Assembly: GCF_003605635.1 (NCBI RefSeq)
Contig: NZ_QMDW01000012.1
Span: 1 to 64,000, forward strand
From: Halonotius pteroides
GTDB taxonomy: Archaea > Halobacteriota > Halobacteria > Halobacteriales > Haloferacaceae
Reading direction: 5' to 3'
DNA length: 64,000 nucleotides
In this document: one piece after another, positions 52,808 through 55,165 of the stretch
Position numbering within the stretch: position 1 is the stretch's first letter
Layout: each line of letters begins with the position of its first letter
Translations under genes and position numbers: made by a program
Notes under the pieces: model-generated
Databases searched by the model: none
The model's input: the letters and a program-made list of their open reading frames with translations, nothing else
Told to the model about the DNA's origin: nothing

Positions 52808-52917
52808 CTGTTCTATTTTATATGGTCTGGACGCATAAAACGATGCGCCGCCTCCGTCTATGAACTAACACGGTGTCGGGTTTTAGCGGTCGGTCTACAG
52901 AGATAGCAGGCAGAGTG

Positions 52918-52938
52918 CCTCGGGGCTTGACCCCGAGG
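52918..52938. repeat. Left-end subterminal hairpin of the IS
   Basis: CCTCGGGG and CCCCGAGG form an 8-bp stem around CTTGA. In this family TnpA recognises such imperfect or perfect hairpins on single-stranded DNA near each end. Confidence 0.75.
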
Positions 52939-52957
52939 GTGAATGCCGTAAGCTCCA

Positions 52958-53371
52958 TTAGACGTGTTCCGTTCGCTCAATGTACTGCTCAATCGTCTGG
53001 CTAGATACCTCACCAGCCGTTCCAATGTAGTACGACTCTTCCCAGAAACCACCACCCCAAAAGTAGTTTTCCAAGAGGTGTTCGTGTTGCTGCCACATTT
53101 CTCTGGCTGTGATACTTTTGATTTTCCGTGCAATCTCGCTTGGGGAATGTTTCGGATGTGCTGAAATAAATAGGTGAACGTGGTCTGGTGAGATATGCAA
53201 TGAGAGTATTTCATAATTGTACTCGCCGCAAACATCTCTGAACGATGCTTCTAACGACTGTTCTATCTCATCAAGCACTGAGTGACGATACTTCGGACAC
53301 CACACGAAGTGGTAGTTGATGTTGTACACCGTGTGATTTGACCGTGTTTCGCCCATATCGGCTAGAGTCAT
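52958..53371 (-). CDS. tnpA: IS200-type transposase TnpA
   Basis: A 137-residue Y1 HUH transposase. The HUH pair is HVH within SPDHVHLFISAHP (about 63-75), and the catalytic tyrosine is in SSQTIEQYIERTEHV at the C-terminus. NINYHFVWCPKYRHSVL is the family N-terminus. It cuts and joins single-stranded ends. An alternative start is the ATG at 53356 (MGETRSNH). The gene reads toward the left end; its start region faces the ribbon-helix-helix gene. Confidence 0.93.
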   Translation of the reverse strand: MTLADMGETRSNHTVYNINYHFVWCPKYRHSVLDEIEQSLEASFRDVCGEYNYEILSLHISPDHVHLFISAHPKHSPSEIARKIKSITAREMWQQHEHLLENYFWGGGFWEESYYIGTAGEVSSQTIEQYIERTEHV

Positions 53372-53381
53372 GCTAAAAACT

Positions 53382-53405
53382 TAAGTATAAGCGTATCTAA
53401 GTATA
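53382..53405. promoter_or_regulatory. Direct repeat between tnpA and the small regulator gene
   Basis: TAAGTATA occurs at 53382-53389 and again at 53398-53405, a spacing of 16 bp. The first copy also fits a TATA box for a near-leaderless transcript of the gene at 53416. Such repeats are suited to a ribbon-helix-helix repressor acting on both directions. Confidence 0.45.
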
Positions 53406-53415
53406 TACCGTAGAG

Positions 53416-53550
53416 ATGACCAAACGCCTCACTGTAGACTTCGAGGACGATTTGTACAAGGAGTTCTCGAAGAAATGCATCGACGCTGAACGTCCGAAAT
53501 CAGAAGTCGTGCGTGAACTTGTCCAAGACTGGGTAAACGACCAAGAATGA
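53416..53550 (+). CDS. 44-residue ribbon-helix-helix protein of the IS
   Basis: The frame encodes a short CopG/Arc-like protein: strand KRLTVDFEDDLYKEF, turn, and second helix SEVVRELVQDWVNDQE. The last codons overlap the tnpB start by ATGA (53547-53550), so it is translationally coupled to tnpB. It probably dimerises and binds the repeats at 53382-53405 to repress transposase genes. Its small size makes it easy to overlook. Confidence 0.75.
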   Translation: MTKRLTVDFEDDLYKEFSKKCIDAERPKSEVVRELVQDWVNDQE

Positions 53551-54851
53551 CACAGGCACAGGCTCTCACCAAGACGCTCGTGTTTCCGCTGGATGTGCAG
53601 AGTGGTAACGAGAGCCTGCTTCACGACGCTCGCTTGGAGTGTCGCCGTGTGTTCAACGAGGTGCTACGTCTCAACTACGATGGATGGGACTGGGACAGGA
53701 TTGAAGACGTTGTTGAGCAGAATGCCGAACTCGTGCAGAACACCGCACAACGCATCATCGACAAAGCCTTCGACGCACTCGACAACTACTACGACAACGA
53801 CGACTGGGGACGCCCGTGGTACAAACACGAAACGTTCCCCTTGCGGATGAACTACGGCGAAGGCTACAACCTCTTTCTCGAAGACGAAACGGTACGGTTC
53901 CGCATTTCAGCGAAACCGTACAACCACGTCAAAGGTGAGCTTCGTGGCACTCCAGACCAGTTCGACCTGCTCACGCAGGCGATGAAAGACGATGACTGGC
54001 ACGTTGGCACTGCCGAAGCTCTCGTCCGACACGGACGCGAGGAATTGCACGTCACCGTCACGAACGAAACCGCAGAAGTCAGTGCAAAGACAACGGCAGA
54101 AACCGTTGTCGGTGTCGATATTAACGAAGATTGTATTGCACTGGCGGCACTGACCGAGAGCGGTATCGAAGATTCGGTTGTCATCGACTATCCAGAAATT
54201 AAGGAGGAACGACACCACTACTTCACGATGCGGAAACGGATGCAAGAGGCTGGACAGACTGCATTCAACGACGTGTTCCGCGACAAAGAACAACGGTTCG
54301 TTCACGACCAGCTACATACTGTGTCACGGCGCGTGGTCGAGTGGATTCAGCGGTTCGACAGTCCTGTGATTGTCTTTGAAGACCTCAAGGACATGAGAGA
54401 CGACATCGAGTACGGGACACGCATGAACCGCCGTCTGCACTCACTCCCCTTCGCCAAACTCCGCGACTTTATTACCTACAAAGCCGCGTGGTGCGGTATT
54501 CCGTCAGATGACGTTGACCCGGAGTACACCAGCCAGCAATGCCCGCTGTGTGGACACACAGAACGGGCGAACCGGGATAAAAAGCGATTCAAATGTCGTG
54601 AGTGCGAACACCAAGACCACGCCGACCGTGGTGCTGGTGTGAGTGTCGCGCAGAAGTGGCTACGAAAGCAAGACAATCGAAATGTGCCTGCTCTCAACAC
54701 ACTCCCGCAGGTGCGGAAGTGGGAGTTGCGACGGCAGGCATCGGGGCCTGTGGACGGCCCGACCGTGACCCACCACACCGCTCAAGGCCACCAGACCGAT
54801 GATGTGTCGGGTGTGTCCGACCAATCCACGGGAAGAAGCTCCGGGGCTTGA
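53547..54851 (+). CDS. tnpB: TnpB RNA-guided nuclease of IS605 family
   Basis: A 434-residue OrfB/TnpB protein. The RuvC-like catalytic acids are Asp191 (VGVDINEDC), Glu278 (VFEDLKDM) and Asp360 (HADRG); the zinc finger is CPLC at 332-335 and CREC at 350-353. TnpB proteins are RNA-guided DNA nucleases that help the element persist. All catalytic residues are present, though the usual DxNAA after the third acid is DRGAG. The stop codon lies in the loop of the right-end hairpin. Confidence 0.92.
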   Translation: MTQAQALTKTLVFPLDVQSGNESLLHDARLECRRVFNEVLRLNYDGWDWDRIEDVVEQNAELVQNTAQRIIDKAFDALDNYYDNDDWGRPWYKHETFPLRMNYGEGYNLFLEDETVRFRISAKPYNHVKGELRGTPDQFDLLTQAMKDDDWHVGTAEALVRHGREELHVTVTNETAEVSAKTTAETVVGVDINEDCIALAALTESGIEDSVVIDYPEIKEERHHYFTMRKRMQEAGQTAFNDVFRDKEQRFVHDQLHTVSRRVVEWIQRFDSPVIVFEDLKDMRDDIEYGTRMNRRLHSLPFAKLRDFITYKAAWCGIPSDDVDPEYTSQQCPLCGHTERANRDKKRFKCRECEHQDHADRGAGVSVAQKWLRKQDNRNVPALNTLPQVRKWELRRQASGPVDGPTVTHHTAQGHQTDDVSGVSDQSTGRSSGA

Positions 54852-54875
54852 CCCCGGAGCAGTTCACTCAGCATG
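54700..54875 (+). ncRNA. Candidate omega/reRNA at the IS right end
   Basis: In characterised TnpB systems the guide RNA is made from the 3' end of tnpB through the right end, with the guide being the flanking DNA just outside it. Here that would be the last ~150 bp of tnpB plus the hairpin, with the guide starting a few bases past 54860. Position is inferred from the family; boundaries are approximate. Confidence 0.35.
54838..54860. repeat. Right-end subterminal hairpin of the IS
   Basis: GCTCCGGGG and CCCCGGAGC form a perfect 9-bp stem around CTTGA. The tnpB stop TGA is bases 54849-54851, inside the loop. Confidence 0.75.
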
Positions 54876-55165
54876 GCCCCGGAGATATATCACCTACTGA
54901 GAATTCAAACAGAGCCGAAAAGTTTGTATATTTTCCGGACGGTGCCGGTAAGTCGGTGGCCTCGGCACTCATAGGGCTCGTCACGGACAGGAGCCACCCC
55001 GCCTCGGAGCGGTGGTGTCGTCATCGGCCAGTCAAAACGACGCGCGACGGCGAAAAGACAGTTGCGCTCGGTATGTAGCCAGCGGCCACGTTGGAGCCGA
55101 CCCAATGTTCATTGCTGGCAATCACCTACCCATGTTGCATGCGATCGAGCAAGAACAAATCGAAG
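54861..55165. other. Intergenic region right of the IS
   Basis: About 300 bp without a gene. TTTGTATATTTTCCGG at 54925-54940 may be a promoter. The region is the original flank into which the IS inserted and would provide the guide for an omega RNA. Confidence 0.35.

What the first reader, a model, noticed from the sequence alone, without database searches (positions are those of the whole stretch)
52918..54860. IS200/IS605 element with a built-in ribbon-helix-helix regulator
A 44-residue RHH protein is placed between divergent tnpA and tnpB, overlaps tnpB by ATGA, and has a TAAGTATA direct repeat (16-bp period) in front. It looks like a transposon-encoded repressor that sets tnpA and TnpB levels. 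It is too short to be called by common gene finders, so it may be widely missed.
Basis: partly seen in the sequence, partly recalled or inferred. Interest (0 to 1): 0.7.

Follow-up and report, generated by a model that had tools for sequence, protein, structure and literature searches.

The report
Transposon with a swappable built-in repressor
A small archaeal jumping element carries its own tiny DNA-binding protein between its two genes, and near-identical relatives carry a different small protein with a different DNA repeat in the same slot, which suggests an exchangeable self-control switch for the element and its RNA-guided nuclease.

Summary
A complete haloarchaeal IS200/IS605 element (about 52899-54867) has divergent tnpA and tnpB. 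A 44-codon gene between them passes Pfam's RHH_1 cut-off and overlaps tnpB by ATGA. The TAAGTATA repeat (16-bp period) occurs once in 64 kb. The gene is under purifying selection. The repeat keeps its lag in 31 of 34 distinct relatives, usually as three 8-bp units, the first overlapping the likely tnpA core promoter. This supports, without proving, an element-encoded autorepressor.

The main new result: the slot is exchangeable. In 149 related TnpB loci it holds RHH (28), DUF2080 (46, four with an extra gene), a VapB/RHH-like protein (19) or nothing recognised (56). Each class has its own upstream motif. Elements about 94% identical in tnpA and tnpB carry unrelated inserts, with homology breaking at the tnpA start codon and just before tnpB. 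Promoter, operator and regulator seem exchanged as one cassette, like phage immunity regions. All 82 tree rows with tnpA have a regulator, against 11 of 67 without.

RefSeq annotates the gene in 6 of 7 plasmid copies, so 'widely missed' is not supported. A heteroimmunity prediction was tested and not supported. DNA binding is untested.

The parts
52899..54867 (.). whole IS200/IS605 element, 1969 bp; TCTAC flanks it on the left (52894-52898), TTCAC is its right end
   Evidence: left and right ends where sibling sequences stop being alike; coordinates; no empty site found
52918..52938 (.). left-end hairpin CCTCGGGG-CTTGA-CCCCGAGG
52958..53356 (-). tnpA, Y1 (HUH) transposase; first ATG at 53371, conserved start at 53356
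   Evidence: Pfam Y1_Tnp 137 bits, NCBIfam transpos_IS200; conserved start
53357..53415 (.). shared promoter region between the tnpA and rhh start codons, 59 bp
53381..53404 (+). putative operator: three 8-bp units TTAAGTAT, AAGCGTAT, CTAAGTAT; the first overlaps the likely tnpA core promoter
   Evidence: conserved in relatives
53416..53550 (+). rhh, 44-aa ribbon-helix-helix protein, proposed autorepressor
   Evidence: Pfam RHH_1 residues 4-41, 26.8 bits against 20.5; pN/pS 0.32; homologues beside tnpB
53547..54851 (+). tnpB, RNA-guided endonuclease family, 434 aa, start overlaps the rhh stop (ATGA)
   Evidence: NCBIfam guided_TnpB 144.6 bits, Pfam Cas12f1-like_TNB
54682..54819 (+). sot2652-like region, probably part of the omega-RNA
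   Evidence: Rfam RF02657 42 bits, below its gathering score 61, E 3.6e-7
54839..54859 (.). right-end hairpin CTCCGGGG-CTTGA-CCCCGGAG

Best explanation
This is an IS200/IS605 element with tnpA on one strand and an rhh-tnpB operon on the other, sharing a 59-bp promoter region. The RHH dimer most likely binds the three 8-bp units, which overlap the tnpA core promoter and lie just upstream of rhh-tnpB, so that it represses tnpA and its own operon (negative autoregulation). Translation of rhh and tnpB is probably coupled through the ATGA overlap. Operator and regulator form one cassette that has been exchanged between elements against two others: DUF2080 with a GTATATCC-N3-GGATATAC palindrome, and a VapB/RHH-like protein with an AAGTATTC...CAGTAAAC motif. 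Shown: gene anatomy, purifying selection, conserved class-specific upstream motifs, exchange of the whole interval. Inferred: DNA binding, repression, coupling, effect on transposition.
For: RHH_1 above the Pfam cut-off; pN/pS 0.32; 29 of 30 RHH loci beside tnpB, 25 of 30 beside tnpA; 16-bp lag in 31 of 34 upstream regions, a relative that lost exactly one 8-bp unit (L075); an AAGTA box 24-26 nt before the tnpA ATG in RHH 18 of 23, DUF2080 29 of 33, VapB-like 16 of 17; class-specific motifs 29 of 34, 45 of 46, 17 of 19 with none in a wrong class; interval from the tnpA start codon to just before tnpB replaced between elements 92-95% identical on both sides; all 82 tree rows with tnpA have a regulator against 11 of 67 without; repeat kept in four RHH loci without a tnpA match.
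Against: No binding, expression or transposition data. The first repeat copy may be conserved as core promoter and not as operator. Motif patterns were drawn from the same sequences they were counted in. The AlphaFold monomer model shows two helices and no N-terminal strand. The 46-aa relatives score below the RHH_1 cut-off (17.4 against 20.5) and keep the repeat less well. Regulator classes show no incompatibility within genomes.
Confidence: 0.72

Rival explanations
1. Antitoxin-like control: the small protein binds TnpB (or TnpA) and blocks it, with TnpB in the place of the toxin of a toxin-antitoxin operon; promoter binding is secondary.
For: All three slot families have antitoxin relatives: CopG/RHH, VAPB_antitox (20.8 bits, below cut-off), and DUF2080, listed as antitoxin SpnP2 in PMC10440598 (passage). 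The gene order (small gene first, overlapping) is that of toxin-antitoxin operons.
Against: The RHH domain fills residues 4-41 of 44, leaving no evident partner-binding segment. Near-identical TnpBs carry unrelated slot proteins, which a specific protein contact would not easily allow. 56 of 149 TnpB rows have no recognised slot protein.
Confidence: 0.12
2. The repeat is only two core promoter boxes, and the RHH protein acts elsewhere, for instance on host genes.
For: The first copy lies where a tnpA TATA box is expected, and this box is shared by all three classes.
Against: The second and middle units are specific to RHH elements at a fixed lag and are kept where no tnpA match is found; the interval is exchanged together with the regulator.
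Confidence: 0.1
3. The RHH protein is an accessory factor of the transposition complex that binds element ends, like relaxosome RHH proteins.
For: TnpA is an HUH enzyme like relaxases, and RHH relaxosome accessory proteins exist (recalled); regulator presence follows tnpA (82 of 82 against 11 of 67).
Against: The only TAAGTA copies in the element are in the promoter; the left-end hairpin is the same in RHH and DUF2080 elements.
Confidence: 0.05

Closest known systems
IS200/IS605 elements with divergent tnpA and tnpB (IS608-like; haloarchaeal IS1341-type tnpB)
   Same: Y1 transposase, TnpB, subterminal hairpins, sot2652-like RNA at the tnpB 3' end
   Different: a third gene, a small DNA-binding protein, between the two; not mentioned in the passages read of PMC3119063, PMC8303175 and PMC12558985
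DUF2080 family transposase-associated protein (PF09853, NF033496)
   Same: small protein in the same slot, often overlapping tnpB by ATGA; already named as transposase-associated
   Different: unrelated sequence; own palindromic upstream motif; no regulatory role found in print
CopG and other minimal RHH autorepressors; ParG
   Same: whole protein is one RHH domain; repeat in its own promoter; gene precedes and overlaps the gene it is thought to limit (CopG-RepB comparison recalled); ParG is the nearest solved relative (both weak)
   Different: here it sits in a transposon, with the operator also over the divergent transposase promoter
Immunity regions of lambdoid phages
   Same: regulator and operators exchanged as one block between otherwise near-identical elements (comparison recalled; exchange)
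   Different: no immunity between elements shown; the indirect test here was negative

Membership tests
IS200/IS605 insertion sequence | Y1 HUH transposase TnpA | tested here: met
   Y1_Tnp 137.4 bits against 23; transpos_IS200 174.7 against 55
IS200/IS605 insertion sequence | accessory TnpB | tested here: met
   guided_TnpB 144.6 bits against 100
IS200/IS605 insertion sequence | subterminal hairpins, no terminal inverted repeats, short target motif at the left end | tested here: met
   hairpins 52918-52938 and 54839-54859, TCTAC before the left end in siblings
IS200/IS605 insertion sequence | clean empty site without target duplication | tested here: inconclusive
   no relative with an intact empty site found
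Ribbon-helix-helix (MetJ/Arc/CopG) superfamily | sequence match to an RHH profile | tested here: met
   RHH_1 26.8 bits against 20.5, nearly full model; a distant homologue falls below, 17.4
Ribbon-helix-helix (MetJ/Arc/CopG) superfamily | strand-helix-helix fold as intertwined dimer | tested here: inconclusive
   monomer model has two helices and no strand; a dimer could not be modelled
Autoregulatory RHH repressor | repeat-type operator in its own promoter | tested here: met
   8-bp units conserved in relatives
Autoregulatory RHH repressor | specific DNA binding and repression | not testable with these tools
   needs EMSA, footprint, reporter
Type II toxin-antitoxin module | small antitoxin gene before and overlapping its partner gene | tested here: met
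   ATGA overlap
Type II toxin-antitoxin module | toxin-binding segment beyond the DNA-binding domain | tested here: not met
   domain covers residues 4-41 of 44
DUF2080 family | match of the window's small protein to DUF2080 | tested here: not met
   no such hit for the window protein; DUF2080 is in siblings only

The most novel reading that the evidence does not exclude
A family of RNA-guided-nuclease transposons carries interchangeable immunity-type cassettes: at least three unlike small DNA-binding regulators, each with its cognate operator, are swapped as one block between the start codons of tnpA and tnpB. If each regulator represses in trans only its own class, the elements would fall into immunity groups, and an incoming element with a foreign operator would escape a resident's repressor.
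Probability: 0.35. Interest if true: 0.8.

Novelty: new variant of a known kind. Interest (0 to 1): 0.62.

Why it matters
TnpB is thought to be the ancestor of Cas12, and how transposons limit their transposase and this nuclease is poorly known. Here a dedicated transcriptional regulator appears built in, and its repeated replacement by unlike regulators with matching upstream motifs gives a natural set of swap experiments. The 'DUF2080 transposase-associated protein', so far without a stated role in the papers searched, gains a testable one as one of several equivalent regulators. It could also bear on the 'stringent copy number control' that PMC3119063 inferred for haloarchaeal IS605 elements (passage).

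Tried and rejected
Empty site: the left flank was searched in 99 family genomes, and the joined flanks were compared with four of the loci found. None reaches the insertion point, so the ends rest on sibling comparison.

Immunity groups or copy-number control by class: regulators within one genome are not of different classes more often than by chance (7 of 21 pairs the same, 8.0 expected, P 0.42), and copies per genome are near Poisson (genomes entered by hand; DUF2080 limited to matches of 108 bits or more; one of three G167 places dropped as a contig-end duplicate; lists were cut).

DUF2080-TnpB fusion: suggested by the open-frame column and rejected after reading four loci.

Viral contigs: the TnpB query found nothing. 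The DUF2080 profile and model gave no credible solved relative (model pLDDT 67.5). The VapB-like profile has no PDB match up to E 1. A sigma-70 scan is uninformative for an archaeon.

The first tree (108 rows) dropped rows through my script error (open frames without a stop, misplaced starts) and was redone with 149 rows. There 14 loci were left out: 10 duplicates, and L030, L035, L071 and L109 (short or early stop). L173 (weak DUF2080 hit) was counted as none; L086 begins at a contig edge and is counted as none without evidence. L077 has no TnpB and was not classed.

Full report
What is there. The window lies in a haloarchaeal draft genome (3.0 Mb, 115 contigs). Between 52899 and 54867 is a complete IS200/IS605-type element: tnpA on the minus strand (52958-53356), a 44-codon ORF (53416-53550) and tnpB (53547-54851) on the plus strand. 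Pfam and NCBIfam identify Y1_Tnp, TnpB and RHH_1 above their cut-offs. Left and right hairpins lie at 52918-52938 and 54839-54859. Siblings keep TCTAC before the left end and CAGTTCAC at the right end and then diverge. The tnpB 3' end matches the sot2652 RNA family below its gathering score (42 against 61 bits, E 3.6e-7); the five other elements examined do the same, so an omega-RNA is likely.

The RHH gene is real. A profile of nine homologues found matches in 40 of 391 class genomes at E 0.01 or better, some of them weak. Of the 30 best loci fetched, 29 have a tnpB homologue directly beside the RHH gene and 25 a tnpA homologue on its other side. Thirty distinct intact sequences give a pooled pN/pS of 0.32 over 435 pairs, with one pair above 1. 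Of 34 copies with distinct upstream regions, 22 end in ATGA overlapping tnpB, 3 use another stop/start overlap, 6 (the 46-aa group) have a short gap before tnpB, and 3 have a broken frame. A search of 294 phylum genomes found it in 8, all of the same order. All 7 haloarchaeal plasmid hits lie beside a TnpB hit. Six of them carry an annotated 'hypothetical protein'; the seventh has an in-frame stop.

The repeat. TAAG and a second TAAG (at most one mismatch) 16 bp on occur in 31 of 34 distinct upstream regions (mean 1.2 after shuffling); lag 8 occurs in 20 of 34 (mean 1.4). The consensus TTAAGtATtTCaGTat.TAAGtAa reads as three 8-bp units; in the window they are TTAAGTAT, AAGCGTAT and CTAAGTAT. 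L075 has lost exactly 8 bp of the array. RHH proteins that bind tandem boxes (MetJ 8 bp, omega 7 bp; recalled) make this a plausible operator. An AAGTA box 24-26 nt before the tnpA ATG is shared by all three regulator classes (RHH 18 of 23, DUF2080 29 of 33, VapB-like 16 of 17), so the first unit probably also serves as the tnpA core promoter.

The slot is exchangeable. I searched 391 class genomes with TnpB (129 have a match at E 1e-120 or better) and obtained all but the last four of the places listed; the list itself was cut. With the RHH loci and a few, 152 non-duplicate loci were classed and 149 entered the tree. In these 149 the slot holds RHH in 28, DUF2080 in 42, DUF2080 followed by a 190-aa protein without a Pfam match in 4, a VapB/RHH-like protein of about 47-55 aa in 19 (VAPB_antitox 20.8 bits, cut-off 27.9), and nothing recognised in 56. 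Five RHH rows entered only through the RHH search. The window's own genome has a second related element whose slot holds the VapB-like gene with an early stop (L002).

Each class has its own upstream motif: TAAG-N12-TAA in 29 of 34 RHH regions, a GTATAT palindrome in 45 of 46 DUF2080 regions, and AGTNYTC...AGTRNAC in 17 of 19 VapB-like regions; none occurs in a wrong class. The patterns were drawn from the same data, so this is description and not an independent test. On the TnpB tree the slot state needs at least 41 changes, 22 among the 93 regulator-bearing rows; well-supported branches alone force 4 for RHH, 7 for DUF2080 and 4 for VapB-like. The labels are still clustered compared with shuffles (mean 77). 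For the same 76 rows the TnpA tree needs 19 changes and the TnpB tree 18, so the slot follows neither gene closely; the TnpA tree has few columns.

Near-identical pairs show the breakpoints. L059 (RHH) and L137 (VapB-like) are 95.2% identical in tnpA and 94.0% in tnpB; homology stops at the tnpA start codon and resumes about 14 nt before tnpB. L126/L185, L136/L154, L171/L185 and L069/L128 show the same. The window's near relative L034 (RHH) and L030 (DUF2080) share the left end and everything from about 9 nt before tnpB (89% identical) but nothing between. Promoter, operator and regulator therefore appear to move as one block.

Association with tnpA. All 82 tree rows with a tnpA match carry a regulator, against 11 of 67 without. 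Rows are related, tnpA was sought only with the window's TnpA, and loci were read over a limited stretch upstream. Four RHH loci without a tnpA match keep the repeat (L065-L068; L067 begins near a contig edge), which fits autoregulation of the operon.

Mechanism. The likeliest reading is an autorepressor: the RHH dimer covers the units, blocks the tnpA core promoter, and limits its own operon with tnpB. DNA binding, repression and coupling are inferred. The main rival is antitoxin-like binding to TnpB; it is weakened by the minimal size of the protein and by unlike proteins serving nearly identical TnpBs. DUF2080 is listed as an antitoxin (SpnP2) in PMC10440598 (passage), and PMC3119063 (passages) infers copy-number control for haloarchaeal IS605 elements. 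A prediction of class-specific immunity was tested and not supported.

Structure. The AlphaFold monomer of the RHH protein has two helices and no strand (pLDDT 80); in RHH proteins the strand pairs across the dimer (recalled), so a monomer model need not show it. The nearest solved protein is ParG by sequence (E 0.029) and by fold (E 1.8), both weak.

Literature. Searches for TnpB with ribbon-helix-helix, haloarchaeal tnpA/tnpB, DUF2080, TnpB with repressor or autoregulation, TnpB with CopG, transposon-encoded repressors, insertion sequences with RHH, and TnpB with antitoxin returned no title, abstract start or passage that describes such a regulator or such a cassette exchange. I read passages of five papers and saw the rest only as listings; the library lacks most subscription papers and all bioRxiv preprints.

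Noticed in passing
54958-55029 (-): A C/D box guide RNA of the sR-tMet family (RF02163, 64.2 bits, gathering score 50) lies about 90 bp beyond the element's right end.
   Followed up: partly
L147, L155, L163, L187 (upstream of tnpB): An extra gene of about 190 aa without a Pfam match sits between DUF2080 and tnpB in four elements, ending at the tnpB start.
   Followed up: partly
L002 (same genome, contig C104): A second element of the same TnpB clade (59% identical) has the VapB-like protein in the slot, with an early stop.
   Followed up: partly
L110-L112, L094 (one genome); L195, L199, L201, L202 (another): TnpB loci without tnpA or a recognised regulator occur in four copies per genome in two genomes, whereas regulator-bearing ones are mostly single. 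Whether loss of the regulator frees copy number was not tested.
   Followed up: no
L072 2812-2909: Two CRISPR-DR24 repeat matches lie on the locus of an RHH-bearing element.
   Followed up: no
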